Positions 1-25,769 of a stretch of DNA of 32,956 bases are shown here, piece after piece. Both the position numbers and the translations under genes were made by a program. The notes below the pieces were generated by a model. It saw only the letters and a list, made by a program, of their open reading frames with translations, had not been told where the DNA came from and made no database searches. This DNA is from Actinomycetota bacterium (lineage in GTDB: Bacteria; Actinomycetota; Thermoleophilia; Solirubrobacterales; 70-9). Every line of letters starts with the position of its first letter. Position 1 is the first letter of the stretch. The stretch is taken from contig JAFDWO010000093.1 of the NCBI GenBank assembly GCA_018268415.1, positions 1 through 32,956 of the forward strand. Direction: 5' to 3'.

Positions 1-76
1 CCGTCACGGAGGAGGGACCCCGTCACGGAGACGTAGGGAACTCCACGCCTCCTCCCGTGTTGTCCAACGCTCACGG

Positions 77-128
77 ACGCGTTCCGTACTTTGACCCTGC
101 CATGGCAGGGTCAAAGTACGGAACGCGT
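77..128. repeat. 52-bp perfect palindrome
   Basis: The left arm at 77-102 and the right arm at 103-128 are exact reverse complements with no spacer, centred on CCATGG. The arms begin ACGCGTTCCG and end at the centre with CCCTGCCA. Flanking bases 74-76 and 130-133 could extend pairing with a small bulge. It lies in DNA without genes, about 660 bp beyond the last gene of the pyridine operon. It could be a cruciform or hairpin-forming intergenic element, or a binding site for a dimeric protein. The perfect symmetry is seen directly; the function is unknown. Confidence 0.85.
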
Positions 129-381: not shown

Positions 382-441
382 TCCCGGGCGCCTCATGGCG
401 GTCACAGCCTGCCAGGAGCGCCATGAGGCGCCCGGGACGGG
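378..441. repeat. Long hairpin, 23-bp perfect arms, conserved loop
   Basis: Bases 378-400 are the exact reverse complement of 419-441, with an 18-nt loop at 401-418. The loop contains ACAGCCTGCCAG at 404-415. The same 12 nt in reverse complement form the whole loop of the hairpin at 32859-32910, although the stems differ. Outer pairing is possible between CGACCCCC at 369-376 and GGGGGTCG at 456-463. There is no T-tract, so it does not look like an ordinary terminator. Confidence 0.8.
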
Positions 442-751
442 TCTCGGACGGGTGCGGGGGTCGGGGTCGGGGGGCATCTCGGACGGGTGCGGGTCGGGGG
501 GTTGCGCGCCATCTCGGACGGGCGCACGGGCCGCGGGCCGCTCCGTATCGCCGCCCGGGCGCCGCATCTCGGACGGGTGCGGGGGTCGGGGTCGGGCGGC
601 CACGCGCCCCGCGCCGCAACTCGGACTGGTGAAGGGGGGCGGGGTCGCGCCGCCACGCGCCGCCGCACCGCAACTCGGACGGGCGGGGTGGTCGGGGGTC
701 GCGCGGCATCGGACGGGTGGGAGACCCGGGGTCGCACCGCAACTCGGACGG
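442..751. repeat. Degenerate G-rich motif array (CTCGGACGGG)
   Basis: A core of CATCTCGGACGGG or CAACTCGGACGG recurs with its start near 440, 475, 510, 565, 617, 671, 708 and 740. Steps are about 32-37 or 52-55 nt. The sequence between cores is G-rich, typically GTGCGGGGGTCGGGG. No two units are identical and there is no cas gene, so this is not a CRISPR array. Confidence 0.65.
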
Positions 752-786
752 CCGCCCCGGCCGTGGATCGCGGGCGGGGCGGGCCG

Positions 787-1545
787 CTAGCTGCCCGCGG
801 TCCCTGCCAGCAGGGATCCCGCCCCGGGCACACTGCGGTCGAGGCCGAGGGCGTCGAGGATCTCGGCGGCGGTGGCGGTGGCGGCGGAGATGACCGGGAG
901 GGAGTGGTCGGTCTCGAGGTCCTCGAGGACTTCGAGCGAGGGCATCTGGACACAGGCCGAGGCGATCAGGGCCTGGGCGCGGCCGAGGTCGAGACCGCGG
1001 GCGTGGTCACGGAGACCCGCCTGGGGCAGTTTGCCGACCTCGACGTTGTTGGAGACCGCGAGGCTCAGGGAGTCGACGACCTCGATGTCGTAGGCCTGGA
1101 TGTAATCGGCGACCAGCTTGGTCAGTGGCGGCATGTACGGGGTCATGATCGCGACCCGTTCGACCCCCTCGCGCTGCAGGGTCCGGATCAGCGCCCCGGC
1201 GCTGGAGACGATCGGGCTGCTGCCCCCGGCCGCGGCGACCACCTCGGCGAGGTGCCGCTCGATCTCCTCGTGGGCGCCCGCCCCCCGCGCCATCAGGGCG
1301 ACGAGGCAGGCGTAGGCGATCACGTCGACGCGGGCGTCGGCGAGCTCACCGGCACAGCGATCGGAGTCGGCCACCATGCGATCGAGCGACTCCTTGTCGA
1401 CGCTGTGCAGGACGGCGCGGCTGGAGTGGAAGGTGACCGGCACGCCGAGGTCGGCGCGGGCCAGCATCAAGGGGATCTCGGTCTCGATCGTCGTGTTCGA
1501 GCTGGGGACGATGAAGCCGATGCGCCTGGTCTCCGCAGCGCTCAT
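787..1545 (-). CDS. nicE: Maleate cis-trans isomerase (NicE/MaiA-like)
   Basis: This 252-aa protein belongs to the Asp/Glu racemase superfamily, maleate isomerase branch, which converts maleate to fumarate through a cysteine addition mechanism. The family signature VPSSNTTIE is at residues 13-21. The two expected active-site cysteines are present: Cys80 (VIAYACLV) and Cys198 (ASACVQMP). Length is normal for the family. The ATG overlaps the stop of the SRPBCC gene as ATGA, so it is the last gene of the operon and catalyses the last pathway step. A related arylmalonate decarboxylase activity is less likely because both cysteines and the pathway context are present. A small hairpin (TCCCTG-CCAG-CAGGGA, 801-816) lies inside its last codons. 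Confidence 0.9.
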   Translation of the reverse strand: MSAAETRRIGFIVPSSNTTIETEIPLMLARADLGVPVTFHSSRAVLHSVDKESLDRMVADSDRCAGELADARVDVIAYACLVALMARGAGAHEEIERHLAEVVAAAGGSSPIVSSAGALIRTLQREGVERVAIMTPYMPPLTKLVADYIQAYDIEVVDSLSLAVSNNVEVGKLPQAGLRDHARGLDLGRAQALIASACVQMPSLEVLEDLETDHSLPVISAATATAAEILDALGLDRSVPGAGSLLAGTAGS

Positions 1546-2237
1546 CGACGCCCCCTGAGGAGGACGATGATCAGCGTCGCGAGCACGGCGCCGAGCGCCG
1601 TGCCACGGAGGAAGTCGTAGGAGATAAAGAAGCCCGCGGGGGCAGCAGCCTCACCGAGCGCGGTCGGTGCCGTGGGGCTGGCCGGCCGGGCGCCGCTCGT
1701 GCCGCCGGTGCCGGCCGCCCGCGCCGCGCTGCCGTTCGACCCCGTCGCCGCGCCGCCGTTCGACGCCGCCGCGGCCCCCGGCCCGACCTCTTCGCCGCGG
1801 ACCGCGCGCTCCAGCGAGGTCATGAAGTCACGGGTCACCGAGTCGGCCTGCTTGGCGATCACCTTCTGCCCGACCGAGCCGAGCACGCCGCCGATCGCCA
1901 GGTCGGCCGCGAGGTTGACCCGCGTGCCCTCCTCGACCGGCTCCAGCGTCACCGTGTTCTGGCTGCGGATGTTGCCCGCCGCGCCCTTCACGGCGCGGCC
2001 GATCGCGGTGAACTGCATCCGCTCGTTCGGCTCCCGCTCGGTGATCCGCATCCGCAGGTCGAAGGTCGCCGTCATCGGGCCGACCGCCTGGGTGACGCGT
2101 ATTTTCGAATTGTCGGCGTCGACCACCTCGACCGCCTCGACCCCGGGCACGCACTTCGCCACCTCGTCGACCTGCTCGAAGAACTCCCAGAGCCGCTCCC
2201 GCGGCTCGGCGATCACGAACGACTGCTCAACCTTCAC
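1542..2237 (-). CDS. SRPBCC (CoxG-type) subunit with C-terminal membrane anchor
   Basis: This 231-aa protein has an SRPBCC ligand-binding domain at about residues 1-148, an Ala/Gly/Ser/Thr-rich linker at 150-205 and one membrane helix at about 212-227, followed by RGRR. I chose the GTG at 2237 because GGAGG lies 8 nt upstream; a longer reading frame upstream has no support. The start overlaps the end of the molybdenum subunit gene. CoxG proteins of CO dehydrogenases have the same plan and are thought to tether the enzyme to the membrane and link it to quinone. Here the partner is an N-heterocycle hydroxylase. A separate SRPBCC subunit is also what I recall for 3-hydroxypyridine dehydrogenase of Ensifer adhaerens HP1. 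Confidence 0.85.
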   Translation of the reverse strand: MKVEQSFVIAEPRERLWEFFEQVDEVAKCVPGVEAVEVVDADNSKIRVTQAVGPMTATFDLRMRITEREPNERMQFTAIGRAVKGAAGNIRSQNTVTLEPVEEGTRVNLAADLAIGGVLGSVGQKVIAKQADSVTRDFMTSLERAVRGEEVGPGAAAASNGGAATGSNGSAARAAGTGGTSGARPASPTAPTALGEAAAPAGFFISYDFLRGTALGAVLATLIIVLLRGRR

Positions 2238-4611
2238 GACTTTCACCTCCGTTGCCGGCTTTGCGTATCGCCCGCCAGACCAGCTCCGGCGTGATCGGCA
2301 GGCTCGAAATCTCGACTCCGTACTCGGCGAGCGCATCGCAGATCGCGTTCGCTATCGCCGCCCCCGGCGGGATCGTCCCCGTCTCCCCCACCCCACGGAC
2401 GCCGAACGGCGTCACCGGCGAGGGAACTTCGGTGTGCAGCAGCTCCACCGCCGGCAGGTCGCTGGCGGTCGGCACGAAGTAATCGAGCATCGTGCCGTTG
2501 ACGAGCTGGCCCGACTGCGGCTCATAACGGAGCTCCTCGGTCAGCGCGGCGCCGAACCCCTGCGCCAGCGCCCCGCGCACCTGCCCCTCGACCGCGCCCG
2601 GATTGACGATCCGGCCGCTGTCGTGGGCGAGGACGAAACGCTCGATCTCGAACTCGCCGGTCTCGGCGTCCACCGCGACCACCGCGGCGGCGCTGCCGTA
2701 CGCGTAAGCGGCATCGGTGGGCTCGAAGTGGGCGGTCGCCTCCAGCCCCGGCTGCTCGTCCGCGGGCAGCCCCTGGCCGATGATCGCCGCCCGGTGCAGG
2801 TCGGCCAGCGTGACCCGCTTGTCCGGGTCGGTGCGGGAGACGACGGCACCGTCGACGACCTCCAGGTCCTCGACCTCCACCGAGAGCTGGCCGGCGGCGA
2901 TCCGCAACGTCTTGTCGCGCAGCTCCTGCGCCGCCTCGCGCACCGCGCCGGATCCGGCGATCAGCGTCCGCGAGGCGAACGCCCCCGTGTTCAGCGGGGT
3001 CGCCCCGGTGTCCCCGGCATGGACCCGGATCGCGTCGAAATCGATCCCGTGCACCTCGGCGCAGATCTGGGCGAAGGCGGTCTCGTTGCTCTGCCCGAAG
3101 GTCGACACGCCGGTGTAGAGGTCGATCCCGCCGCTGCGGTTGGCGCGCAGCGTGACGCTCTCGTGGGCGCCGTAACGGGACCCACGGTTGGCGAGGAACT
3201 TGGCGCTGGCATAGCCGGTGCGCTCGACGAAGCAGGTGAAGCCGACGCCGCGGTAACGACCGTCCTCCCCCGGCCCGCGCCCCGCCGCCCGCAGCCGCTC
3301 ATAGTCGATCGCCTCGGCGACCATCCGCAGGCACTGCGCGTAATCGCCGCTGTCGTAGAGGGCGCCCGCCGCGTTCCGCCACGGCAGCTCGTCGGCCCCG
3401 AGCAGGTTCTGCAGGCGCAACTCGTAGGGATCGCGGCCGAGCCTGCGCGCCAACCGGTCGATCAGGGTCTCGCGGGCGAGGTTGACCTCCGGCTGCCCGT
3501 AACCACGGTAGGCGCCGACCGGCGTCTTGTTGGTGACGGCGACGCGGCGCTCGACCGCACCGTCCTCGACCCGGTAGGGCCCGGTGAAGACGATGCTGGA
3601 GAGCTGGGCCGAGCCGAAGCCCGAATTCTGGCCGCCGAGATCGGTGGTATAGAGGTCGGTCATCGCGACGAACGTGCCGTCGGCGTCGGCGCCGATGCGA
3701 AACTCGTGCACCGACTCGCGGGCGTGGGTCGAGGCGCGGAAGTGCTCGAGCCGATCCTCCACCCACTTCACCGCGCGCCGCAGGTCCATCGCGTGCCGGC
3801 AGGCAAGGAGCTCCTCCGGGTAGAGGCCGAGCTTCAGCCCGAAGCCGCCGCCGACGTCACCGGTGATCACCCGCACTTCGCCCTCGTCCAGACGCAGCGA
3901 CTCGGCCAGCTGCATGCGGACCAGGTGGGGCACCTGGGTCGCGACGTGGGCGGTCAGCTCGCGCGCCCCCGGCCGCCACTCGGCGACCACCGCGCGCGGC
4001 TCCATCGGCAGCGGCGCGACGCGGCCGATCTGGAAGCTGTCGCCGACGACCACGTCGGCATCGCGCAGCACAGCCTCCGCATCACCACGGTGCTGCGGGT
4101 TGGACGCGAGCAGGTTGCTCTCCATCCGATCGGGGTGGATGACCGGGGCGTCGGGCTCGAGCGCCGCCAGCGTGTCGGTGACGTGGGCGAGCGGCTCGTA
4201 ATCGATCCAGATCGCCTCGACCGCGTCCTCGGCGATCTGCCGGCTGTCGGCGACGACGCTGACCACCGGCTGGCCCTCGAAGACACAGAACTCCTCGGCC
4301 AGGGCGTAGAAGGGCAGCTGGACCGCACCGGGCACCGGGCGCAGGACGCCGATCGGCTCGGTGCGGGCGACGATGTCGACCCCGGTCAGCACCTGGTGGA
4401 CACCGGGCATCGCGGCCGCCGCCTCGACGTCGATCGACTCGATCCGGGCGCGTGGGAAAGGACAACGCCCGACCGCCATGTGCAGGGAGCGGGCGGGCTC
4501 GACGTCGTCGGTGAAGCGCCCGTCGCCCTGCAGAAGGCGGTCGTCCTCCTTGCGCGGGACGGAGCTGCCGAGGACCCCGGTCCGCCGCTCGGTGGCGACG
4601 CTGCCGCTCAC
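2227..4611 (-). CDS. Molybdenum hydroxylase large subunit (xanthine oxidase/CoxL family)
   Basis: This 794-aa molybdopterin-binding subunit is of normal length. Visible marks are the N-terminal SSVPRKEDDRLLQGDGRFTDD block, a GGGFGLK cofactor motif, GAYRGYGQPE in the active-site region, and a C-terminal GVGETGTIPP carrying the catalytic Glu of the family. The CO dehydrogenase loop (AYRCSFR type) is absent, so it is not a true CO dehydrogenase. The GTG start at 4611 overlaps the FeS gene stop as GTGA. In this operon the likely reaction is ring hydroxylation of a pyridine to give 2,5-dihydroxypyridine. The exact substrate, 3-hydroxypyridine or a relative, is inferred from the neighbours. Confidence 0.88.
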   Translation of the reverse strand: MSGSVATERRTGVLGSSVPRKEDDRLLQGDGRFTDDVEPARSLHMAVGRCPFPRARIESIDVEAAAAMPGVHQVLTGVDIVARTEPIGVLRPVPGAVQLPFYALAEEFCVFEGQPVVSVVADSRQIAEDAVEAIWIDYEPLAHVTDTLAALEPDAPVIHPDRMESNLLASNPQHRGDAEAVLRDADVVVGDSFQIGRVAPLPMEPRAVVAEWRPGARELTAHVATQVPHLVRMQLAESLRLDEGEVRVITGDVGGGFGLKLGLYPEELLACRHAMDLRRAVKWVEDRLEHFRASTHARESVHEFRIGADADGTFVAMTDLYTTDLGGQNSGFGSAQLSSIVFTGPYRVEDGAVERRVAVTNKTPVGAYRGYGQPEVNLARETLIDRLARRLGRDPYELRLQNLLGADELPWRNAAGALYDSGDYAQCLRMVAEAIDYERLRAAGRGPGEDGRYRGVGFTCFVERTGYASAKFLANRGSRYGAHESVTLRANRSGGIDLYTGVSTFGQSNETAFAQICAEVHGIDFDAIRVHAGDTGATPLNTGAFASRTLIAGSGAVREAAQELRDKTLRIAAGQLSVEVEDLEVVDGAVVSRTDPDKRVTLADLHRAAIIGQGLPADEQPGLEATAHFEPTDAAYAYGSAAAVVAVDAETGEFEIERFVLAHDSGRIVNPGAVEGQVRGALAQGFGAALTEELRYEPQSGQLVNGTMLDYFVPTASDLPAVELLHTEVPSPVTPFGVRGVGETGTIPPGAAIANAICDALAEYGVEISSLPITPELVWRAIRKAGNGGESREG

Positions 4612-5102
4612 CGCTCGTCCTCGACGCCGACGGCATCGCCGTTCAGCACCCGGTCGACGGCGTTGACGATCCCCTCGTAACCGGTGCACCGGCAGATCAC
4701 GCCGCTGAGCTCGTCACGGATCTCCTCCCGGTCGAGGCTCCGGCCCGACTCCTTGAGCGCGGTCGCGGTCATCAGGAAGCCGGGGGTGCAGAAGCCGCAC
4801 TGGAGACCGTGGGCCTCCTTGAAGGCCCGTTGCACCGGGGCCAGCTCGCCGCCCTCGGCCAGCGACTCGACCGTCCGCACCTCGCGGCCGTCGAGCTGCG
4901 GCGCCAGCATCAGGCAGGACTTCACCGCGTCGCCGTCCAGAAGGATCGTGCACATCCCGCAGACGCCCTGCTCGCAGCCCACGTGGGTGCCGGTGAGCCC
5001 GAGCCCGCGGCGCAGGAAGTCGGCGACGTGCATCCGCGGCGAGACCTGCTCGCGGTGGACGGTGCCGTTGACGGTGACGGTGATCTCGATCAGTTCATCC
5101 AT
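4608..5102 (-). CDS. Molybdenum hydroxylase [2Fe-2S] small subunit (CoxS type)
   Basis: This 164-aa protein carries both iron-sulfur clusters that pass electrons from the molybdenum centre to FAD. The plant-ferredoxin-type cluster ligands are Cys43, Cys48, Cys51 and Cys63. The second cluster uses Cys102, Cys105, Cys137 and Cys139 (CGFCTPG and CRCTG). All eight cysteines are present, so it should be functional. The ATG at 5102 overlaps the FAD-subunit stop by 8 nt, and its own stop overlaps the large-subunit start, which suggests translational coupling. The length is typical. Confidence 0.93.
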   Translation of the reverse strand: MDELIEITVTVNGTVHREQVSPRMHVADFLRRGLGLTGTHVGCEQGVCGMCTILLDGDAVKSCLMLAPQLDGREVRTVESLAEGGELAPVQRAFKEAHGLQCGFCTPGFLMTATALKESGRSLDREEIRDELSGVICRCTGYEGIVNAVDRVLNGDAVGVEDER

Positions 5103-5964
5103 GGCGTGGCTCCTTGGCGAGGCCCGCCAGCAGCCGGCCGAGGTGGATCGGCAGCAGGTGGGCGCGGTACTCGGCGCTGGCGCGGACGTCCTCGGGCGGG
5201 TCGGCGTCACGCAGGGCCAGCGTCGCCGCCTCGGCCAGCGCCGCCTCGTCCCAGCGGGCGCCCTCGAGGCGCTCCGCCGCCGCCCGCGCCAGCACCGGGG
5301 TGTCGTTCATCCCGCCCATGCCGATGCGCACGTCGTGCCAGGTTCCGTCGCTCTCCGGCGTGGCGACCACGGCCAGGCTGAGGACGGCGAAGTCGTTGTG
5401 CTTGCGGCCCCGCTCGAAGAACGCGGAGCGGGACGGCACGACGCCGAAGCGCACCCCGGTGATCATCTCCTCGGGGCCGAGCGTGTTGGCGTAGGAGCCG
5501 ACGAAGAAGCCGTCCGCGGCCAGCTCCCGCTCCCCGCCGGGACCGGTGACGAGTACCGTCGCGCCGAGCGTCAGGGCGACCAGCGCCACCTCGCCGGTCG
5601 GGTCCGACTGGGCGATCGCGCCGCCGAGCGTGCCCCGGTTGCGGACCTGACGGTCGCCGATATGACGGATCGCGGTGCCCAACAACGGCAGTCGCTCGGC
5701 GATCACCGGCGAGGTCTCGGCCTCGCTGTAACGGACCAGGGCGCCGATCGTCGTCTCCGACCCGCGCGCCTCGATCCGGCCCAGCTCCTCGCCGAGGCCG
5801 TTGATGTCGATCACCGCGCCGGGGCGCATCAGCCGCATGCCGAGCATCGGCACCAAGCTCTGGCCGCCTGCCAGGATCCGCGCCGTGCCGCCGTAGAGGT
5901 CGAGCGTCGCGACCGCCTCGGCCACCGACTCGGGCCGCAGGTATTCGAACGAGGCGGGCTTCAC
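5095..5964 (-). CDS. Molybdenum hydroxylase FAD subunit (CoxM type)
   Basis: This 289-aa protein starts KPASFEYLRPES, typical of the family. FAD-contact motifs are AGGQSL at residues 32-37 and GTLGGAIAQSDP at 111-122. It takes electrons from the FeS subunit and passes them to an acceptor. The GTG start at 5964 overlaps the stop of the upstream ATP-grasp gene as GTGA. The order FAD-FeS-Mo-SRPBCC is contiguous, so the four genes very likely form one enzyme. Confidence 0.92.
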   Translation of the reverse strand: MKPASFEYLRPESVAEAVATLDLYGGTARILAGGQSLVPMLGMRLMRPGAVIDINGLGEELGRIEARGSETTIGALVRYSEAETSPVIAERLPLLGTAIRHIGDRQVRNRGTLGGAIAQSDPTGEVALVALTLGATVLVTGPGGERELAADGFFVGSYANTLGPEEMITGVRFGVVPSRSAFFERGRKHNDFAVLSLAVVATPESDGTWHDVRIGMGGMNDTPVLARAAAERLEGARWDEAALAEAATLALRDADPPEDVRASAEYRAHLLPIHLGRLLAGLAKEPRHG

Positions 5965-7043
5965 TTGTCGCCGCGGGCCCCGAGGAAGGTCGCCATCACC
6001 CGGCCGAGGGCGTCGCCGCCGCTCTCGTTCCCGTTCCCGTTGCCGCCGGCGCTCGGGGCCGCCTGGCGCGCGGACCAGATCGTCTCCGGGCGCGCCTGCA
6101 GCAGGTGCAGCCGGCCCTCGACGTCGATCGCCCACTCGCAATCGGTCGGGCCGCCGCGGTGGCGCTCGACCCGCTTGCCGAGCTCGGCGATCGTCCGCGC
6201 CTCGTCCTCGGTGATCGAGCCCTCCTCGCGGCGCTCGGCCGGGACCGGGAGCAGGCCGACCTCGCCCGCCTCGCCGTCGAACCGGTATTCCTCGGCCTGG
6301 TCGACCACCTCGCGCTCGAGCACCTCGAGCGTGATCTTGTCGACCCGGTGGCGATCCGGCTGCACGTCGCCTTTGACGACGCCCTCGCCGAGCCCCCAGC
6401 AGCTCTCGATCACGATCCGCGACCGGTCGCCGCTGATCGGGTCGAGCGTGAACATGACGCCCGCCGAGCGGGCGCGGGCCATCACCTGGACGCCGACCCC
6501 CATGCCGGGGATCTCGGCCTCGGCGGGCGACTCGACGCCGTCCGGCCGGTAGGTGAGGACGGCGGCGTTGAAGAGGCCCGACCAGCACCTGCGCACGTTG
6601 TCGACCACATCGTCGGCGCCGCTCACCCAGAGGTAGGTGTCGTACTGCCCGGCGAAGCTCGCCCCCTCGAGGTCCTCGTTGACGCCGCTCGAGCGCACCG
6701 CCACCGGGACGTCCGCACCGACCCGCCGCTCGAGCTCGGCGTAGGCGGCGCGGATCTCCGCCTCGACCTCGGCCGGCAGCGCGGCCGCCTCGATCAGCGC
6801 CGCGATCTCGGCCGCGGCCCGCTCGACCGCGGCAACGTCGGCGACGTCGAGTCCCGCGCGGATCGCGTCGATCCGCTCCGCCGGCCCGGCGGCCTCCAGG
6901 AACTCCGCGAAGGCCTCGGTGGTGACCCCGAACGCCGGGGGCACGGCGAAGCCGGCCGCGGTCATCTCGGCAAGGCTCGCGACCTTGCCGCCGACCAGGT
7001 CACTGGTGGCGGCAGGGTCATCGATCCAGAGGACGCGGGGCAT
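5961..7043 (-). CDS. Stand-alone PEP synthase/PPDK ATP-grasp domain protein
   Basis: This 360-aa protein matches only the N-terminal ATP-binding half of PEP synthase. It has GGK at residues 18-20, VRSSG at 116-120, EDLEGASFAGQ at 123-133, a WGLGEGVVKG block, and the closing QARPET motif near residue 325. It lacks the swivelling phosphohistidine domain and the PEP/pyruvate barrel of full enzymes. Split proteins of this type occur in phenylphosphate synthase, which phosphorylates phenol. In E. adhaerens HP1 a PPDK-type and a PEP-utilizing protein were reported as needed for 3-hydroxypyridine dehydrogenase (recalled, not checked). The expected His-domain partner is not in this window. The gene begins 2 nt after the nicX-like stop. 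A Gly/Asn-rich tail follows the domain. Confidence 0.85.
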   Translation of the reverse strand: MPRVLWIDDPAATSDLVGGKVASLAEMTAAGFAVPPAFGVTTEAFAEFLEAAGPAERIDAIRAGLDVADVAAVERAAAEIAALIEAAALPAEVEAEIRAAYAELERRVGADVPVAVRSSGVNEDLEGASFAGQYDTYLWVSGADDVVDNVRRCWSGLFNAAVLTYRPDGVESPAEAEIPGMGVGVQVMARARSAGVMFTLDPISGDRSRIVIESCWGLGEGVVKGDVQPDRHRVDKITLEVLEREVVDQAEEYRFDGEAGEVGLLPVPAERREEGSITEDEARTIAELGKRVERHRGGPTDCEWAIDVEGRLHLLQARPETIWSARQAAPSAGGNGNGNESGGDALGRVMATFLGARGDK

Positions 7044-7045
7044 GA

Positions 7046-8095
7046 TCAGACGGCGGCGGGCCGCTCGGCCTTCAACACGTCGACCACGATGTCACCGTCG
7101 ACGACGATCGGCTCGTCGTCGAGGTAGAGCGTGCAGTTGCGCATCGGCACGTCGACGTGGCAGAGGGTCTGGTTGGGGCCGCCGAGCTCCCCGTTGGGGC
7201 CGGTCGAGAAGAGGACGTTGCCGTAGAAGGAGCGGCCGTGCATCCCCATCCCGCGCCGGTCGTGGGCGAGGATCGACCACTGCGCCGTCTCCAGCATCCC
7301 CCAGCCGATGTGGCTGATGCCGTAGGCGTCGGGATCGTCGAAGGAGGCCATGTACTCGCGCAGCAGGTCGGCGTCGACGCCGCCGTCGATCGCGGTGATC
7401 CGGCCCCGCTCGATGGTCAGCTCGATCGCCGTCTGCACGTAGGACTTGAACGGGAAGATGATGTCGCCGGGAGCGATCACGACCTTGCCGTCGACGCCGT
7501 CGTCGGCCCCGCCGGTGAAGAGGAAGCCCGACGGCCAGTGGTCCCAGCGGCCGGGCGTGTCGGTGTAGCCGTACTGGGTCATCGCCGGGTAGGCACCCAG
7601 CTGGTAGGTGACGTCGGAGCCCGCCTCGTTGGTGAAGCGCAGCGTCTTCGCGTTGCCGAGGAGCTCGGCGCCGGCCTCGACCCGCTCGCGCAGGCGGGCG
7701 CTCGGCTGCATCGCTTCGATGTGCTCGACCGGCTCGATGCAGAGCAGGATCCGCGTCCCCGATTCCTGGATCTCCATCTGCTCGGGCGAGAAGAGGAGGA
7801 AGACCGTGTCGATGACCAGGTCGACGCCCTTCAGCGCCTCGATCGCCGGGCGGTTGCCGGCCAGCGGCGTCGCACCGACCTCCCAGACCCCGTCTTCCCC
7901 GTCGAGCGAGGAGTCGACCGACGCCAGGCGGACGTTGAAGCCGGTCGCCCCGAGTTGTTCGCCGGCGGCGATGAACGCATCGACATAATCGAGTTTGCGG
8001 TTGCCCTGGGAGAGCACCGCGATGGTGCTGCCCTCGCCGATGCCGCAGAGCTCGAGCTCGTCACGGCATAGATCGGTGAACGTGGTCTGTGACAT
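7046..8095 (-). CDS. nicX: 2,5-dihydroxypyridine 5,6-dioxygenase (NicX-like)
   Basis: This 349-aa protein resembles NicX, the Fe(II) extradiol-type dioxygenase with an M29-aminopeptidase fold that opens 2,5-dihydroxypyridine to N-formylmaleamate. Expected metal ligands are present: His262 (YGISHIGWG) and the HVD pair His313 and Asp315 (LCHVDVPM). As I recall, NicX of Pseudomonas putida uses His265, His318 and Asp320, nearly the same spacing. Length agrees. The ATG at 8095 has GGAGG 6 nt upstream. It lies 17 nt after the deformylase gene. A plain M29 aminopeptidase is the alternative, but the operon around it fits ring cleavage. Confidence 0.88.
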   Translation of the reverse strand: MSQTTFTDLCRDELELCGIGEGSTIAVLSQGNRKLDYVDAFIAAGEQLGATGFNVRLASVDSSLDGEDGVWEVGATPLAGNRPAIEALKGVDLVIDTVFLLFSPEQMEIQESGTRILLCIEPVEHIEAMQPSARLRERVEAGAELLGNAKTLRFTNEAGSDVTYQLGAYPAMTQYGYTDTPGRWDHWPSGFLFTGGADDGVDGKVVIAPGDIIFPFKSYVQTAIELTIERGRITAIDGGVDADLLREYMASFDDPDAYGISHIGWGMLETAQWSILAHDRRGMGMHGRSFYGNVLFSTGPNGELGGPNQTLCHVDVPMRNCTLYLDDEPIVVDGDIVVDVLKAERPAAV

Positions 8096-8112
8096 CGATT
8101 CCTCCGTCGAAT

Positions 8113-8982
8113 CTAGGAGCCGTCGCCGCCGGCGGCAAGCTCGGTTTTCAGTGCGTCGTCAAGAACCGTGTTGAAGCCCTCGGTGTTGTCCCAAGGGATC
8201 ATGTGGCCGGCGTCCGGCACGACCGCATATTCGGCACCCGGATTGGCCTCGCGGGCTTCGGCCATCCCCTCCTCCGTCACCACCGGGCTGTTGCCACCGC
8301 GGATCAGGGCGGCCGGCGTCGGGACCGCGGCCCAGGTCTCGAGGAAGCCTTCCTCGGCGAAGCGGTCGTAGGTGGCGAGAACGGCGTCACGCTCGCAGGT
8401 GCCCACCCAGCGGGCGCGCAGCAGGAGCTCGGTGCGGGGCCAGAGCGGGTAGGCAGCGGCGACCTCGTCGGCGGTGGTACCCGCGTAGCCGCCGTCGAGC
8501 TGGGCTTCGAAGGACTCGCGCGGCGTCGGGTAGCCGCCGCGGCCGGGGCCGCAGAGCGGCGGGTCGACGCAGATCGTCTTGCCGAGCTCGACGTCGCCGC
8601 GGGCGGCGAGGGCGGCGGCGATCCGGGCACCGAGGCTGTGGCCGAGGACGAGTGGGCGCTCCAGCCCCAGCTGGTCGACCGCGGCGGCGGCGTCGGCGGC
8701 GAAGTCGGCGGCCGCGTACTCGCCGCCCGCCTCGCTGAAGCCACGGCCGCGCAGGTCCATCACCAACGGCCGGACCCGATCGCGCAGCGGCGCGACGATG
8801 AAGTCCCAGGTGATCGCCGGGCTGGTGATCCCCGGCAGGACGAGGAGCGGCCGCGCGTCACCGCCATAATCGAGGACGTGGAGGCGACGGCCGTCGCTCT
8901 CGATCCAGCGGCTCTCGGCGCCGAGGGCGCGCAGCTCCTCGCGGTCTGAGTCGGTGATCGGGCGGCGTTGGTTCTCAGGCAT
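8113..8982 (-). CDS. nicD: N-formylmaleamate deformylase (NicD-like alpha/beta hydrolase)
   Basis: This 289-aa alpha/beta hydrolase has the nucleophile elbow GHSLG with Ser116, a [13 protein letters not shown] stretch starting at Asp140, and His260 in DAGHMIPWD. The DPP-GPGR-YP stretch is a feature I associate with NicD/Hpo, where the acidic triad residue sits in an unusual place. The role is removal of formate from N-formylmaleamate to give maleamate. The ATG at 8982 was chosen for AAGGAG 9 nt upstream; it overlaps the leuB-like stop by 8 nt. Other alpha/beta hydrolase activities cannot be excluded from sequence alone, but the neighbours make deformylase the best reading. Confidence 0.82.
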
Positions 8983-9982
8983 CGGCGGGCTCCTTGCTGG
9001 GGTCGGCGTCGAGGGCCGCGACGACCGCGTCGCCGAGCTCGGCGGTGCTCGCCGAGCCACCTTGGTCGCGGGTACGGACGGTGGTGGCGGCCCGGTCGAG
9101 CGCCGCTTCGAGGCGCGCCGCCTGGTCGGGAAGGTCGAGCCCGTGCTCGAGCAGCATCGCCACCGAGCGGATCGCCGCGGTCGGGTTGGCGATGCCCTGG
9201 CCGGCGATGTCGGGCGCGGTGCCGTGGACCGGCTCGAAGAGGCCGGGCCCGGAATCGCCGAGGCTGGCGCTGGCGGCGAGCCCGAGCCCGCCGCTGAGCG
9301 CCGCGGCGATGTCGGAGAGGATGTCGCCGAAGGTGTTCTCGGTGACGATCACGTCGAAGCTCTCCGGCGCCTGCACGAGCCGCATCGCGGCGGTGTCGAC
9401 CAGCAGGTGGTCGAGCTCCACGTCGGGATAATCGGCGGCCAGCGCCAGCGCCCGCTCCCGCCACATGCGCGAGGTCGCGAGGACGTTGGCCTTGTCGACC
9501 GAGGTCAGCTTGCCGCGCCGCGAGCGGGCCAGCTCGAAGCCGCGCCGCAGGACCCGGTCGACCTGGTCGGGCCGGTATTCGCAGGTGTCGTAGACGGTGC
9601 CGTCGGCGCGGGTCCCGCGCTCGCCGAAGTAGAGGCCGCCGACCAGCTCGCGGACGATCAGCAGGTCGATCTCCGCGGTGCGGAACGGGCGCACGTTGGC
9701 GTAGACGTCGAGCGCCCGACGCAAGGAGAACATCCCGTCCTCGGGATTCGACGTCGACCAGGAGTAATCACCGGAGCCGACCGCGCCGAGCAGGACCCCG
9801 TCGGCTTCTTCGCAGGCGGCGAGGGTCACGGGCGGCAGCGCGTCGCCGTCCTGGGCCAGCGCGTCGAAGCCGATCAGGTGCTCGGATGCCTCGAGGTCGG
9901 GCACGACCGCGACCAGCACCTTGCGGGCCTCGGCGACCACCTCGGGGCCGATCCCGTCGCCGGGGAGGAAGACGACCTTCAT
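8975..9982 (-). CDS. 3-isopropylmalate/D-malate dehydrogenase family (LeuB-like)
   Basis: This 335-aa protein is a complete NAD-dependent beta-decarboxylating dehydrogenase. It starts [15 protein letters not shown] and has [17 protein letters not shown] with the catalytic Tyr, SVDKANVL with the catalytic Lys, the Asp-rich FGDILSD metal site, and [18 protein letters not shown]. It looks most like 3-isopropylmalate dehydrogenase. Its position is odd: ATGA overlap with the maleamate amidase gene upstream and 8-nt overlap with the deformylase gene downstream, in the middle of a pyridine operon with no other leucine genes. It could be the cell's leuB moved here, or could oxidise a C4 hydroxyacid such as D-malate. 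Sequence alone does not decide. Confidence 0.85.
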
Positions 9983-10632
9983 CGGCCTGGCTCCTCGCCC
10001 GCCGGGGCGGCGACGTAGGCAAGCGCGTCGTCGAGGTCGATCACGTCGCCGTACTTGGCGTCGATGTCGAAGAGGTTGGCCTCGTGGGGGGCGGCGGCGC
10101 GGTCGCCGACGCAGGGCCGCGGGACGAGCACGGTGAAGCCGTACTGGACCGCGTCGACGACGCTGGCGCGCACGCAGCCGCTGGTCGTCGCGCCACAAAC
10201 GAGCACGGTGTCGACGCCGCGGGCGGTGAGCGACGCGGCGAGGTCGGTGCCGAAGAAGGCCGAGGGGCCCTTCTTCACGACCAGCGCGTCCTTGGCGTCG
10301 CGCGGGAGGCGCGGGTCGAGGTCGACCATCTCGCTGCCGGTCCGCAGGATGCCCATCCCGGGCGCCTTGCACAGCCAGGCACAACCGCCGTCGAGGTCGG
10401 CCTCCTCGTAGGCGATCGTGGTGAAGACGACCGGTGCACCGGTCGAGTGGGCCACGTCGACCAGGTCCGAGGTCGCCTTGACCACGTCGGTGAGGTCGGC
10501 CCCGGTCGGGAACTCGGGCTCGGTGAACCCGCGGCTCAAATCGACGACCAGGATGGCCGGACGACTGCCCCGCGGCACGCGATTGCCCCAGCCGGCGCGC
10601 GCATAGATCTTCCCCGTCTCTCTCTCGCTCAT
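9979..10632 (-). CDS. nicF: Maleamate amidohydrolase (NicF-like, isochorismatase fold)
   Basis: This 217-aa cysteine hydrolase of the isochorismatase family carries the triad Asp31 (VVDLSRGF), Lys120 or Lys121 (VVKKGPSAFFGT) and Cys153 (TTSGCVRAS). The SAFFGT block and length match maleamate amidases, which release ammonia and maleate. It is the first gene of the ten-gene operon. The start is uncertain: ATG at 10632 gives MSERETGK, while ATG at 10644 adds four residues. Neither has a good ribosome site, and the latter lies about where transcription might begin, so a leaderless mRNA is possible. N-carbamoylsarcosine amidase is a less likely alternative. Confidence 0.85.
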   Translation of the reverse strand: MSERETGKIYARAGWGNRVPRGSRPAILVVDLSRGFTEPEFPTGADLTDVVKATSDLVDVAHSTGAPVVFTTIAYEEADLDGGCAWLCKAPGMGILRTGSEMVDLDPRLPRDAKDALVVKKGPSAFFGTDLAASLTARGVDTVLVCGATTSGCVRASVVDAVQYGFTVLVPRPCVGDRAAAPHEANLFDIDAKYGDVIDLDDALAYVAAPAGEEPGR

Positions 10633-10645
10633 GTCGGAGAGCATT

Positions 10646-10659
10646 GCATACACGTATAC
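10646..10659. promoter_or_regulatory. Candidate GntR operator in divergent promoter region
   Basis: GCATACACGTATAC is an imperfect inverted repeat with ATAC/GTAT arms. It lies between the nicF-like gene and the gntR gene, just ahead of the nicF starts. It contains a -10-like TATACT on the plus strand (10655-10660), and its minus strand reads TATACG. The half-site TGCATAC (10645-10651) recurs as TGCATACA at 10727-10734, next to the gntR start. FCD-type GntR proteins commonly bind AT-rich inverted repeats. No convincing -35 was found for either direction. Confidence 0.45.
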
Positions 10660-10726
10660 TTTGCTCAAGTGAGGGTCGCGAAATGGCGCTGTAGACCCCT
10701 TTTTCGCGGTTGGTGGAGGTACTATC

Positions 10727-10734
10727 TGCATACA
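10727..10734. promoter_or_regulatory. Second TGCATAC half-site at the gntR start
   Basis: TGCATACA sits between GGAGGT (10715-10720) and the ATG of gntR at 10735. It repeats the half-site found 82 nt upstream. If bound, it could allow autoregulation by blocking transcription or translation. This is a short match and therefore weak. Confidence 0.3.
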
Positions 10735-11471
10735 ATGGGGCGCAAACCTCTAAAGTCATCCGAGATGGTGGAACTCGCGGTACCGACCGGAGCACTGCGC
10801 GGGGAGAAGACCAGCGCCTCGGCTGCGCGCATCCTCCGCGAGGCCATCTTCTCCGGTGAGCTGCGCCCCGGCCAGACCCTCGGCGAGGAGAACCTGGCGC
10901 GCCAGCTCGGCATCAGCCGCACCCCCGTCCGCGAGGCCCTCGTCCTGCTGCGCGGCGAAGGCCTGGTCGAGACGCCGCCCAACCGCCCCGCGGCCGTCCG
11001 CAACTTCACCGGCAGCGACCTGCGCGAGATGCACTCGCTGCGCGCCGTCCTCGAGGGCTACGCGGCGCGGACGGCGGCCCCGCTCCTCACCGACGAGCAG
11101 CTCGGCGAACTGGAGCGCAGCGTCGAGCGCTACGCGTCGCTGATGGAGAACGACGCGATGCTGCGCGAACTGGTCGCCGAGAACTTCACCTTCCACAACA
11201 CGATCATCGACGCGGCGGGGAGCGAGCGGCTCAAGTCGATGATCCGCCAGACCACGGCGATGCCGCTGATCTACCGCTCTTACATGACCTACTCGCGCGA
11301 GAACCGCGATTCCGCCTTGCAGGACCACCGCAAGATCCTCGCCGGGCTCCGCGATCGCGATCCCGAGCGGGCCGAATCGCTGATGAAGGCACACGTCCTC
11401 TGGGCCCGTGACGTGGCGCTCGCCCACCTGCCGCTGATCGAGGACGCCGCCGAAGCCCCGGGCACTCCCGC

Positions 11472-11475
<4 letters not shown>
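10735..11475 (+). CDS. GntR-family regulator (FCD type)
   Basis: This 246-aa regulator has an N-terminal winged helix (about residues 25-90, with LARQLGISRTPVREAL as recognition region) and an all-helical FCD ligand-binding domain after it, with His residues that could bind metal or acid ligands. It is divergent from the pyridine operon, with about 100 bp between, so it likely controls that operon and itself. The ATG at 10735 has GGAGGT 14 nt upstream, longer than usual; the next ATG is at 10765. Its stop overlaps the following ATPase start as GTGA, so the two are co-transcribed. The ligand may be a pathway intermediate such as a C4 dicarboxylate, which is inference. Confidence 0.88.
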
Positions 11476-14408: not shown

Positions 14409-15947
14409 TCACCTGGCGCGTTCGGCCTCTACCAGCTTGAACTTCTGCAGCTTGCCGGAAGCCGTCTTCGGCAGCGGCGGGCCGTGGGTGATCTGCCATT
14501 GCTTGGGGATCTTGAAGCGCGCGACGAACGGTTCGATCGACGTGCGCAACTCGTCCGCGTCGACGGATCGGCCGTCCTCGAGGACGATGACGGCCTTGGC
14601 GATCTCGCCCCATTTCTCGTCCGGGACGGGGATGACCGCGGCTTCGGCGACCGCCGGGTGGCGCATCAGCGCGCCCTCGATCTCGACCGGGTAGATGTTG
14701 AGGCCGCCGCTGATGATCACGTCCTTGGAGCGGCCGGAGATGAAGAGGAAGCCGTCCTCGTCGAGGTAACCGAGGTCACCGGTGTGGAGCCAGCCGCCCC
14801 GCAGCGCGGCCGCGGTTTCCTCCCCCCGCCCGTAGTACCCGATCATCGTGGCGGGCGAGCGGGTGAGGATCTCGCCGACCTCGCCGGGCGCGCGGTCGAC
14901 GTCGTCGGCATCGACCACCCGCATCTGCGAGACGCAGTTCGGCCGCCCGGCCGAGCCGAGCTTGCGGGCCGCGTCAGCGGGCTCCAGCAGCGTTACCAGG
15001 GAGGGGAACTCGCTCATCCCGTAAACCTGGATCCCGGTGAGGTCCGGCAGCCGCGCCGCCATCTCTTCGAGCAGGTTGACCGGCACCGCCTCGCCGCCCG
15101 CGATCGCCAGCATCCAGGAGGAGAGGTCGAAGCTCTCGAGGTCGGGGACCGAGAGGATCAGCCGCAGGACGGTCGGCACCAGGGCCACGGTGGTGACCCG
15201 CTCGCGCTCGACCGTCGCGCAGAACTCGCGCGGGTCGAAGGAGCGATTGCTGGGCGCGAGGACGACCCGCCCGCCCGACCAGAGCGTCTCCAGGTGCAGC
15301 GAGTGGAAGCCGGCGACCCAGCTCAGGGCGGGCAGGCAGTAGTAGACGGTGTCGGCCGAGAGGTCGAAGTGCGGGCGCTGGGAGATCGCGTTCCACATCA
15401 CCGTCGCGTGGGTGTGCATCGCGCCCTTCGGGAAACCGGTCGTGCCCGAGGTGTACTGGAGGAGGAAGAGGTCGTCGCCGTTCACCTCGACGGCGGGAGC
15501 CGGGGCGTCGCCCGCGCGCAGGCCCGGGAGATCGTGATCGCCGTACCCGGCCTCCGACCCGATCACGGTGAGTCGCTCGCGCACCGCGGCGTCGAGGCCG
15601 TCGACTTTGTCCCAGAGATCAGGTTCGGCGACCAGCCACCGGGCCCCGCAATCGTCCGCGATGTAGGCGATCTCGTGCGGCGTCAGCAGGTGGTTGAGCG
15701 GCACGATCACCCCGCCCAGCCGGGCCAGGGCGAAGAAGACCTCGTGCCACTCGGTGCGCGTGTGCATGAGCACGCAGAGCCGGTCGCCCTTGGCGAAGCC
15801 CGCCGCCGCCAGCCCGGCGGCGACCCGCTCGGCCCGGTGCTCCAGCTCCTCGTAGGTCAGTGCCGTCGCCGCGTCGGCGACCGCGACGCGCTGCCGCTCA
15901 GCGGCGTCGGTCTTGGCGACCAACTGAGCGAGGGTGAAGACGCTCAC
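14409..15947 (-). CDS. Acyl-CoA synthetase (AMP-forming ligase)
   Basis: This 512-aa protein belongs to the adenylate-forming superfamily. Visible motifs are the P-loop YTSGTTGFPKGAM, YGMSE, LHTGDLGYLDEDGFLFISGR, and the C-terminal PKTASGKLQK with the catalytic Lys. It activates a carboxylic acid to its CoA thioester through an acyl-AMP. The substrate cannot be read from sequence. The GTG at 15947 overlaps the E2 stop as GTGA, making it the last gene of the long minus-strand unit. In context the acid may come from the retro-Claisen hydrolase encoded upstream. Confidence 0.88.
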   Translation of the reverse strand: MSVFTLAQLVAKTDAAERQRVAVADAATALTYEELEHRAERVAAGLAAAGFAKGDRLCVLMHTRTEWHEVFFALARLGGVIVPLNHLLTPHEIAYIADDCGARWLVAEPDLWDKVDGLDAAVRERLTVIGSEAGYGDHDLPGLRAGDAPAPAVEVNGDDLFLLQYTSGTTGFPKGAMHTHATVMWNAISQRPHFDLSADTVYYCLPALSWVAGFHSLHLETLWSGGRVVLAPSNRSFDPREFCATVERERVTTVALVPTVLRLILSVPDLESFDLSSWMLAIAGGEAVPVNLLEEMAARLPDLTGIQVYGMSEFPSLVTLLEPADAARKLGSAGRPNCVSQMRVVDADDVDRAPGEVGEILTRSPATMIGYYGRGEETAAALRGGWLHTGDLGYLDEDGFLFISGRSKDVIISGGLNIYPVEIEGALMRHPAVAEAAVIPVPDEKWGEIAKAVIVLEDGRSVDADELRTSIEPFVARFKIPKQWQITHGPPLPKTASGKLQKFKLVEAERAR

Positions 15948-17176: not shown

Positions 17177-17177
17177 G

Positions 17178-19167: not shown

Positions 19168-19179
19168 CTGGCGCCGTGC

Positions 19180-19968: not shown

Positions 19969-20059
19969 GTTTCCTTCCCTTTCCGTTCGAATCTAGGGGT
20001 CCCCCGGCGAGCCGCAAAATACGCCGCGCCGGGCCGGCTGTTGATCCGCACACCCGCGT

Positions 20060-20803: not shown

Positions 20804-20825
20804 TCCTTGCTCCTTCCCTCGGATT

Positions 20826-24357: not shown

Positions 24358-24418
24358 GGTCAGCACCGGCCGGCGGGGACGCGCGAGGGCGCCCCCGCCG
24401 GGTTGTCGCCGGCCGGGA

Positions 24419-25591: not shown

Positions 25592-25649
25592 CGATTCTCC
25601 TCCGTCGGTTCAGGTCCCCGTCGGGTGCGGCAGGTTCAGGTCGCTTCCC

Positions 25650-25670
25650 CCGTCCGGATGCTCCGGACGG
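25650..25670. promoter_or_regulatory. Inverted repeat upstream of the importer unit
   Basis: CCGTCCGGA (25650-25658) and TCCGGACGG (25662-25670) are exact reverse complements around a 3-nt loop. It lies in the 209-bp gap between the PucR-type gene and the binding-protein gene, 59 nt before the latter's start. It could be an operator, or an RNA hairpin in the leader. Confidence 0.55.
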
Positions 25671-25755
25671 TCGACTCCCTGGCCCACCCCGACGGCCATC
25701 GCGGCGATTGTCCGCGGCGCCCGGGGGGCGGGCAACCACCTTCCCGGCGACCCGG

Positions 25756-25769
25756 TGTGGCATGCCACA
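25756..25769. promoter_or_regulatory. 14-bp perfect palindrome, candidate operator
   Basis: TGTGGCATGCCACA reads the same on both strands. It lies 165 nt before the binding-protein start and 32 nt after the regulator gene ends. It is a good candidate for a dimeric regulator controlling the importer and catabolic genes, possibly the PucR-type protein encoded next to it. Confidence 0.55.

What the first reader, a model, noticed from the sequence alone, without database searches (positions are those of the whole stretch)
787..10632. Complete 3-hydroxypyridine-type degradation operon in a putative actinomycetote
Ten tightly overlapping genes encode every step from a hydroxylated pyridine to fumarate: molybdenum hydroxylase, 2,5-dihydroxypyridine dioxygenase, N-formylmaleamate deformylase, maleamate amidase and maleate isomerase. 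The key residues are intact (NicX His262/His313/Asp315; NicE Cys80/Cys198; NicF Asp31/Cys153). No flavin monooxygenase of the NicC type is present, which argues against plain nicotinate breakdown and for direct hydroxylation of 3-hydroxypyridine. The gene set resembles, from memory, the 3hpd cluster of Ensifer adhaerens HP1, but here it is fused with a leuB-like gene in one operon.
Basis: partly seen in the sequence, partly recalled or inferred. Interest (0 to 1): 0.82.

Follow-up and report, generated by a model that had tools for sequence, protein, structure and literature searches.

The report
Operon for eating 3-hydroxypyridine, with kinase
A soil-type actinobacterium carries what looks like a complete set of genes to break down the ring compound 3-hydroxypyridine, and comparison with relatives suggests that the ring is first tagged with phosphate, then oxidised, then untagged, a trick described for phenol-type compounds.

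Summary
In detail: ten co-directional genes fill 787-10632 (minus strand) and encode a molybdenum hydroxylase, NicX, NicD-, NicF- and NicE-like enzymes, with intact catalytic residues and no NicC. The list was incomplete: two of the ten are a CoxG/SRPBCC protein with a hydrophobic tail and a stand-alone ATP-grasp protein, one half of a two-component small-molecule dikinase (HpeHI/CreHI/phenylphosphate-synthase type). The other half lies on another contig of the genome, beside an HD-fold protein and XdhC. In three congeners both genes lie just downstream of the operon, and both units share an operator-like motif. In a kinase-blind sample of 80 NicX loci, the ATP-grasp half occurs in 17 of 18 loci with this hydroxylase and 0 of 62 others. 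It is a 3hpd-type (3-hydroxypyridine) cluster in Solirubrobacterales. My mechanism: 3-hydroxypyridine is phosphorylated, hydroxylated next to the ring nitrogen, dephosphorylated to 2,5-dihydroxypyridine, then split to fumarate, formate and ammonia. Shown: genes, residues, co-occurrence, predicted fold. Inferred: substrate and phosphorylated intermediates. The extra LeuB-like dehydrogenase is lineage-specific and follows the ring-cleavage genes, not the hydroxylase.

The parts
9979..10632 (-). nicF-like maleamate amidase (isochorismatase fold; D31, C153)
   Evidence: Pfam Isochorismatase 7.7e-34 (on ORF 9979-10731); 4l07 3.6e-59, 3ot4/3uao 1.4e-42; residues
8975..9982 (-). leuB-like dehydrogenase, 335 aa, altered pocket motif (GMFSLRR for GLLGLRK) and a loop about 15 residues shorter than the own canonical leuB
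   Evidence: Iso_dh 1.8e-104; TIGR00169 350.4 bits, just under cut-off 353.2; alignment
8113..8982 (-). nicD-like N-formylmaleamate deformylase (alpha/beta hydrolase, GHSLG)
   Evidence: 4l0c Deformylase 8e-49; motif
7046..8095 (-). nicX, 2,5-dihydroxypyridine 5,6-dioxygenase
   Evidence: 7cn3 2.5e-97; iron ligands H262, S297, H313, D315; no Pfam or NCBIfam match at 0.001
5961..7043 (-). stand-alone PPDK_N ATP-grasp protein, 360 aa: ATP-binding half of a two-component small-molecule dikinase
   Evidence: PPDK_N 4.2e-93; best PDB hit 9goj 1.6e-66; tree
5095..5964 (-). FAD subunit (CoxM type) of the Mo hydroxylase
   Evidence: FAD_binding_5 5e-41, CO_deh_flav_C 7.5e-23 (on the longer ORF 5095-6588)
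4608..5102 (-). 2x[2Fe-2S] subunit (CoxS type)
   Evidence: Fer2_2 2.6e-28, Fer2 2.3e-07 (on ORF 4608-5210)
2227..4611 (-). molybdenum-cofactor large subunit (CoxL type), GAYRGYG and GVGET motifs
   Evidence: MoCoBD_2 1.4e-72 (on ORF 2227-4689); 1t3q 1.2e-145; motifs; tree
1542..2237 (-). CoxG/SRPBCC protein with C-terminal hydrophobic tail (GTG at 2246 also possible)
   Evidence: COXG 6.9e-18 (on ORF 1542-2336); tail
787..1545 (-). nicE-like maleate cis-trans isomerase (C80, C198)
   Evidence: 2xec 1.7e-59, 4fq7 4.8e-59; residues; Pfam family Amdase 2.3e-19
10768..11475 (+). divergent GntR/FCD regulator
   Evidence: FCD 1.3e-23, GntR 3.6e-16; at least 100 bits in 17 of 18 Hpd-type and 3 of 62 other NicX loci
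10644..10659 (-). operator-like site GTATACGTGTATGCAA upstream of nicF
   Evidence: conserved in relatives; also, with 2 mismatches, before HD-PEPu on contig C124

Best explanation
This is a 3-hydroxypyridine (3HP) catabolic operon of the 3hpd kind in a Solirubrobacterales bacterium. A two-component dikinase (ATP-grasp subunit 5961-7043 plus the 607-aa swivel/substrate subunit on contig C124) phosphorylates the phenol-like hydroxyl of 3HP. The four-component Mo hydroxylase (CoxM/S/L plus membrane-anchored CoxG) hydroxylates the phosphorylated ring next to the nitrogen and sends electrons to the membrane. The HD-fold protein on C124 removes the phosphate, giving 2,5-dihydroxypyridine. NicX opens the ring, NicD releases formate, NicF releases ammonia and NicE turns maleate into fumarate. 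A GntR/FCD regulator on a shared operator controls both units. Shown: gene content, residues, predicted HD fold, co-occurrence. Inferred: substrate, the order phosphorylation-oxidation-dephosphorylation, electron route, regulation.
For: NicX-to-NicE identities and residues. 3HP gives 2,5-dihydroxypyridine by alpha-hydroxylation in Agrobacterium DW-1 (PMC6525221, abstract and discussion read). No NicC. Kinase halves: family searches of the own genome find one stand-alone ATP-grasp half (window) and one stand-alone swivel half (C124) besides one ORF with both domains on C154. The swivel half has SDIGGIMAH, His565, matching T/SXXGGXXXH with Met at -2, as in phenolic kinases (PMC12167813 section 8), and its Hpd-type rows form one 100/99 clade apart from the Pps-, Cre- and Hpe-type pairs included. 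Linkage: HD-PEPu lie after NicE and a reverse amt in three congeners; operator-like site at both units. Kinase-blind co-occurrence in Hpd-type vs other NicX loci, by bit thresholds set: PPDK_N 17/18 vs 0/62, PEPu 16/18 vs 2/62, HD 16/18 vs 1/62, CoxG 16/18 vs 0/62, NicC 0/18 vs 41/62; the misses of kinase, HD and CoxG (L060, L061, L075) lie at contig ends. HD fold: model pLDDT 90.9, best match HD protein YpgQ, Foldseek E 6.6e-4, invariant H53, H79-D80, H107, H139, D154 in 16 sequences. Precedent: HpeCBA carboxylates only phosphorylated substrates and the phosphatase HpeD follows (PMC9618137 passages).
Against: No biochemical evidence; no paper in the library holds any of five phrases for phosphorylated 3-hydroxypyridine or its kinase (0 papers). 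The second kinase half and the HD gene are not in the window; adjacency rests on sibling synteny, because the 117 bp shared by the contig ends is a dispersed repeat. The HD protein reaches no Pfam cut-off (DUF4202 27.5 vs 35.1 bits; HD 14.1 and 17.1 vs 22 bits in two relatives, nothing in a third), only one structure matches below 1e-3 (TM 0.57), and its similarity to the HD proteins of cre-type clusters is weak (hhalign probability 11-15%). G412 has hydroxylase (55%), CoxG and both kinase halves, but no HD, NicD, NicE or NicF hit in the stretch and only a 35% NicX-like protein. The 18 loci are not independent lineages, and the scan that gave the 80 was capped and pattern-based. Weaker CoxG hits (54-60 bits, below my threshold) occur in three of the 62 other loci (L056, L064, L130). 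The operator pattern with up to 2 mismatches is not rarer genome-wide than its reversed control (3 vs 5 hits), and it also stands before nicF in L056, which has no kinase in its locus.
Confidence: 0.64

Rival explanations
1. 3HP operon as above, but the hydroxylase acts on free 3HP; the kinase only traps 3HP or its product inside the cell, with the HD enzyme releasing it on demand.
For: Trapping by phosphorylation is the authors' own suggestion for HpeHI (PMC12167813 discussion). Same gene evidence as the main reading.
Against: In the Hpe pathway the next enzyme accepts only phosphorylated substrates (PMC9618137 passages). The co-inheritance here ties the kinase to this one hydroxylase clade and not to NicX pathways in general.
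Confidence: 0.2
2. The dikinase subunits assist the Mo hydroxylase itself (cofactor maturation, or phosphorylation of a subunit), not the substrate.
For: XdhC, a Mo-hydroxylase maturation protein, follows the swivel subunit on C124.
Against: The swivel subunit carries the His motif of small-molecule phenolic kinases; the family search of this genome finds no second stand-alone ATP-grasp half although there are six other MoCoBD_1 proteins.
Confidence: 0.07
3. Operon for another hydroxypyridine or N-heterocycle that also yields 2,5-dihydroxypyridine (for example an alkyl- or carboxy-substituted 3-hydroxypyridine).
For: Substrate not shown; NicX fixes only the product. Best solved relative of the large subunit is quinoline 2-oxidoreductase. 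The window NicX has Gln174 where P. putida NicX has Glu177.
Against: No decarboxylase or dealkylating enzyme is evident among the ten genes; nicE falls in the Amdase fold family but its best solved relatives are maleate isomerases. 3HP is the mono-hydroxypyridine whose alpha-hydroxylation gives 2,5-dihydroxypyridine and whose hydroxyl suits a phenol kinase (chemistry, inference).
Confidence: 0.15
4. Ordinary nicotinate (nic) or nicotine pathway.
For: Shared lower pathway NicX/D/F/E.
Against: NicC absent from the window and from 18 of 18 loci with this hydroxylase; large subunit apart from the NicC-associated ones included in the tree.
Confidence: 0.03

Closest known systems
3hpd cluster / HpdA of Ensifer adhaerens HP1 (Wang et al. 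2020, AEM.01313-20; title seen as a citation in PMC11962113, content recalled, paper not held)
   Same: Four-component Mo hydroxylase with a separate SRPBCC/CoxG subunit, PEP-utilising protein and PPDK-type protein, 2,5-dihydroxypyridine route (HP1 side recalled)
   Different: Lineage; extra leuB-like gene; gene order and sequence identity to HP1 not compared; the HD protein and the phosphorylated intermediate are my additions (whether HP1 has the HD gene is unknown to me)
Two-component small-molecule dikinases HpeHI, CreHI, PpsAB
   Same: Split ATP-grasp (about 40 kDa) and swivel/substrate (about 70 kDa) proteins, T/SXXGGXXXH motif with Met at -2, beside an enzyme that modifies a phenol-like compound
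   Different: Own clade; Ala before the phospho-His in 17 of 26 rows with the motif, all in Hpd-type genomes, Ser in the other 9, which include the two rows of G412; paired with a Mo hydroxylase and a pyridine pathway; 'pyridine' does not occur in the HpeHI paper's main text
Cre-type clusters (P450 + dikinase + HD protein; L018, L142; the label 'cre-type' is mine, from recalled gene content)
   Same: Kinase halves, oxidase and HD-domain protein in one cluster
   Different: Cytochrome P450 instead of a Mo hydroxylase; HD proteins only weakly alike
nic cluster (nicotinate degradation)
   Same: NicX, NicD, NicF and NicE lower pathway
   Different: No NicC; different hydroxylase; kinase, HD and CoxG added
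Mo-CO dehydrogenase with CoxG
   Same: CoxM/S/L architecture and CoxG with hydrophobic tail
   Different: GAYRGYG in place of the CO dehydrogenase active-site Cys motif (that motif recalled)

Membership tests
3hpd-type cluster (features recalled from the HP1 abstract) | Mo hydroxylase of three subunits plus separate SRPBCC protein | tested here: met
3hpd-type cluster (features recalled from the HP1 abstract) | PPDK-type ATP-grasp protein and PEP-utilising protein linked to it | tested here: met
   ATP-grasp half in operon; swivel half on C124, downstream of the operon in three congeners
3hpd-type cluster (features recalled from the HP1 abstract) | 2,5-dihydroxypyridine ring cleavage to maleate/fumarate | tested here: met
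   by homology and residues only
3hpd-type cluster (features recalled from the HP1 abstract) | sequence orthology to E. adhaerens HP1 proteins | not testable with these tools
   paper not held; 0 of 394 genomes of the family of S. shofinae matched at 1e-200
3hpd-type cluster (features recalled from the HP1 abstract) | activity on 3-hydroxypyridine | not testable with these tools
   needs assay
two-component small-molecule dikinase | ATP-grasp domain as a separate protein without PEP/pyruvate domain | tested here: met
   360 aa, PPDK_N only
two-component small-molecule dikinase | swivel subunit with T/SXXGGXXXH and Met at -2 of the His | tested here: met
   SDIGGIMAH, His565
two-component small-molecule dikinase | ATP-dependent phosphorylation of a phenolic substrate | not testable with these tools
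   needs assay
HD-superfamily phosphohydrolase | HD fold and H...HD...D metal motif | tested here: met
   motif invariant in 16 sequences; model and Foldseek
HD-superfamily phosphohydrolase | score over a Pfam cut-off (HD or DUF4202) | tested here: not met
   DUF4202 27.5 vs 35.1 bits; HD 14.1 and 17.1 vs 22 bits in relatives
HD-superfamily phosphohydrolase | orthology to the HD protein of cre-type clusters | tested here: inconclusive
   colinear motifs but hhalign probability 11-15%
nicotinate (nic) cluster | NicC monooxygenase | tested here: not met
LeuB equivalog TIGR00169 | score over curated cut-off | tested here: not met
   350.4 vs 353.2 bits
Mo-CO dehydrogenase | active-site Cys motif (recalled AYXCSFR) | tested here: not met
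   GAYRGYG instead

The most novel reading that the evidence does not exclude
A phosphorylation-gated pyridine pathway: a two-component dikinase turns 3-hydroxypyridine into pyridin-3-yl phosphate, a Mo hydroxylase with a CoxG membrane anchor oxidises that ester, and an HD hydrolase frees 2,5-dihydroxypyridine. It would extend phosphate-activated aromatic catabolism to N-heterocycles and explain why Hpd-type clusters in at least two phyla carry a split dikinase.
Probability: 0.6. Interest if true: 0.8.

Novelty: new variant of a known kind. Interest (0 to 1): 0.58.

Why it matters
It gives a testable job to the dikinase genes that accompany the four-component 3-hydroxypyridine hydroxylase, makes the phenol-kinase subfamily relevant to N-heterocycle breakdown, and shows the gene set, with an HD protein and a shared operator-like site, in a little-cultured actinobacterial order, with counterparts across Actinomycetota and Pseudomonadota.

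Tried and rejected
Nicotinate reading: rejected (no NicC). Absence of the second kinase half: rejected after finding it on C124. Contig overlap as proof of adjacency: dropped, because the shared 117 bp is a dispersed repeat; 40 of 240 candidate places were scored and all 40 match over at least 104 of the 117 bases, so the copy number is a lower bound. The idea that Hpe-type clusters need no phosphatase: dropped after reading that HpeD is one. Clade-specific basic residues in the large subunit as a phosphate pocket: 10 found, but no coordinates to place them, so not used. NicX H105F as a lineage trait: not used, since the scan pattern FLLFSPEQ itself selects for Phe. HP1-type hydroxylase in the family of Sinorhizobium shofinae: none in 394 genomes at 1e-200. 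Operator scan genome-wide: 3 hits vs 5 for the reversed control, so it counts only by position and conservation. PDB search by sequence for the HD protein: only two designed proteins at E 0.14-0.16, taken as nothing. Plasmid search for a close large subunit: 1024 records with a match, all below 60% identity, 41% the highest among the 40 rows listed. A sigma-70/terminator scan of 10600-10800 found nothing.
Full report
WHAT IS THERE. Ten genes on the minus strand run from 10632 down to 787: nicF-like, leuB-like, nicD-like, nicX, a stand-alone PPDK_N ATP-grasp gene, coxM, coxS, coxL, coxG (SRPBCC) and nicE-like. Seven of nine junctions overlap by 4-11 nt and two gaps are 2 and 17 nt. A GntR/FCD regulator diverges at 10768-11475. 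NicC has no hit in the window, with positive controls L067 and L090.

THE MISSING HALF. [quoted passage not shown] In the own genome (94% complete) PF01326 is found only in the window and in an 899-aa ORF on C154, and PF00391 only in that ORF and in a 607-aa stand-alone protein on C124. On C124 the order is amt (reverse), a 218-aa DUF4202/HD-like protein, the 607-aa PEP-utiliser and XdhC. The window ends at a contig edge inside a 117-bp repeat that also starts C124, but that repeat occurs at 40 or more places in the genome (40 of 240 candidates were scored), so adjacency here rests on synteny. An operator-like site GTATACnnGTATGCAA lies upstream of nicF; three matches with at most 2 mismatches exist in the genome, one of them in the amt-HD gap of C124, with 3-mismatch matches at the corresponding place in the three congeners. 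The reversed control pattern has 5 matches, so the count itself is at chance level; position and conservation carry the weight. Of 11 regulator-nicF gaps extracted, 7 (the window, L055-L058, L060, L061) hold an exact TGTATGCA, L056 among them; the other four (L078, L081, L102, L128) show, by eye, a related palindrome.

CO-OCCURRENCE, KINASE-BLIND. I split the 80 loci by their large subunit (at least 50% identity and 400 bits to the window's): 18 Hpd-type and 62 others. With the bit thresholds: PPDK_N 17/18 vs 0/62; PEP-utiliser 16/18 vs 2/62; HD 16/18 vs 1/62; CoxG 16/18 vs 0/62 (weaker hits of 54-60 bits in L056, L064 and L130); GntR 17/18 vs 3/62; NicC 0/18 vs 41/62; LeuB 6/18 vs 1/62; NicE 14/18 vs 51/62, NicD 17/18 vs 54/62 and NicF 16/18 vs 56/62 do not differ. 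The kinase, HD and CoxG misses among the 18 are L060, L061 and L075, whose stretches stop at contig ends; L085 lacks NicE and NicF hits. The two PEP-utiliser loci among the 62 are L062 and L063; the genome of L062 has an Hpd-type large subunit on another contig, and L063 is an 8998-bp contig that cuts the gene. The loci are related, so the Fisher p-values (1.8e-16 for PPDK_N) overstate independence; but the pattern occurs in Actinomycetota and in Pseudomonadota (L076, L085; L075 is cut) with different gene orders. In 396 genomes drawn from the phylum, 3 (the own genome included) had the large subunit at 1e-250; in the other two, G209 and G412, both kinase halves lie beside it. In 17 chosen genomes the PEP-utiliser rang in 6: G003, G005, G011, G209, G412 and G489, all with the large subunit; of the 11 without it, three (G483, G484, G490) were tested for the large subunit and lack it at 1e-200, the other eight were not tested for it. 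G490 is the genome of L056, a relative that keeps NicF-LeuB-NicD-NicX (best segments 78-92% identical) but lacks this hydroxylase and the PEP-utiliser genome-wide, and the ATP-grasp half within its locus: it looks like a natural module swap.

KINASE AND HD. The PEP-utiliser rows of Hpd-type genomes form one clade (100/99, 21 of 28 rows) apart from the phenylphosphate-synthase pair beside ppcBDAG in Azoarcus (L141), the P450-linked pairs in Rhodococcus (L018, L142) and the carboxylase-linked pair in Rhizobium (L020); two short rows (L058, L063) were left out. The ATP-grasp tree (27 rows) gives a 19-row clade (95/99) with G412 outside it. Among 30 PEP-utiliser rows 26 reach the His motif: 17, all from Hpd-type genomes, have Ala before the His; the 9 others (Azoarcus, two Rhodococcus, Rhizobium, three from the order, and the two of G412) have Ser. 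In HpeH the C580A variant was faster than wild type (1.0 vs 0.6 U/mg) and H581Q showed no activity (PMC12167813; abstract, passages and sections 8 and 10 read). The HD protein has invariant H53, H79-D80, H107, H139 and D154 over 16 sequences; it reaches no Pfam cut-off; the AlphaFold2 model, made on the L057 protein, has pLDDT 90.9 and matches YpgQ best (Foldseek E 6.6e-4, probability 1.00, TM 0.57, the only match under 1e-3), followed by an annotated HD-superfamily hydrolase, 2pq7. Its alignment to the HD proteins of the P450-linked clusters is colinear but weak. That CreD is the phosphatase of the cresol pathway is recalled; CreJ as its P450 is in passages of PMC9549646.

HYDROXYLASE. The large subunit is closest among solved structures to quinoline 2-oxidoreductase (490 bits), then CO dehydrogenases (471, 419), with nicotinate dehydrogenase (137 for its larger chain) and xanthine dehydrogenases (152 at most) far lower. 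In a 39-row tree 20 rows (18 Hpd-type rows with the window, plus G209 and G412; L060 was too short) form a 100/100 clade, apart from the 12 large subunits taken from non-Hpd loci, eight of them beside NicC, and from the six other own subunits; the nearest row, from a quinoline-bioreactor Rhodococcus plasmid, joins with weak support (82/27) and a long branch. CoxG has a hydrophobic C-terminal tail in 16 of 19 rows by eye (L061 is cut, L138 and L139 lack it; L056, not Hpd-type, was not counted), fitting membrane anchoring as proposed for HP1 and shown for other CoxG proteins (PMC11962113, passages read).

LEUB-LIKE GENE. It is not the only copy: C8 carries a canonical-looking leuB (49% identity), whereas this one has MF for LL in the motif that I recall as lining the substrate pocket and a loop about 15 residues shorter, and it just misses the LeuB cut-off. 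At 150 bits or more it occurs in 6 of 18 Hpd-type loci, all actinobacterial MAGs (four titled Solirubrobacterales or Conexibacter), and in L056 without the hydroxylase; G412 carries a relative of another subfamily, tartrate/D-malate-like by recalled motif. It therefore goes with ring cleavage, not hydroxylation; oxidation of malate-like products is my guess.

MECHANISM. Step order, with basis: 3HP phosphorylated (inferred from kinase class and co-inheritance); alpha-hydroxylation (family; shown for 3HP in another organism, PMC6525221, abstract and discussion read); dephosphorylation (inferred from the HD fold and linkage); ring cleavage to N-formylmaleamate, deformylation, deamidation, isomerisation (homology plus residues). 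The Hpe pathway is the closest precedent: its carboxylase acts only on phosphorylated substrates and a phosphatase follows (PMC9618137, passages read). From memory only, and not checkable here: the HP1 abstract says that a PEP-utilising protein and a PPDK are involved in HpdA activity, with function open. A search of the library for five phrases naming phosphorylated 3-hydroxypyridine or its kinase gave 0 papers; most subscription papers are not in it.

Noticed in passing
window 1-128: Dispersed palindromic repeat (26-nt perfect inverted arms at 77-102/103-128); at least 40 copies matching 104-117 of 117 bases in the genome (40 of 240 candidates scored), several within 300 bases of contig starts.
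   Followed up: partly
window 440-780: Degenerate direct repeats around CTCGGACGGG, 52-69 nt apart, downstream of nicE.
   Followed up: no
window 14409-27669: A second catabolic-looking cluster: acyl-CoA synthetase, 2-oxoacid dehydrogenase E2/E1, enoyl-CoA hydratase, SDR, ABC transporter with periplasmic binding protein (Peripla_BP_4), GAF/PucR regulator.
   Followed up: no
L056: Relative with NicF-LeuB-NicD-NicX but a flavin reductase, CoxM, a CoxG-like protein and hydantoinase B after NicX in place of the Hpd module.
   Followed up: partly
L062:1001-3301: Molybdopterin oxidoreductase of the PF00384 type between NicE and NicX-HD-PEPu in a Conexibacter MAG.
   Followed up: no
L139 (G412): Divergent Hpd-like cluster: 55% large subunit, two PEP-utilisers, 35% NicX-like protein with Ala at the Ser iron-ligand position, dehydrogenase of another Iso_dh subfamily.
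   Followed up: partly
L138 (G209): Two PEP-utiliser copies (64% and 54%) in one Hpd cluster.
   Followed up: no
window 7046-8095: NicX has Gln174 where P. putida NicX has Glu177; Gln in 7 of 19 Hpd-type loci (L055, L057-L061, L138), Glu in 12; Gln also in 4 of 62 others.
   Followed up: partly
L014:715-2124: Ammonium transporter gene divergent from HD-PEPu, possibly under the same operator; the pathway releases ammonia.
   Followed up: no
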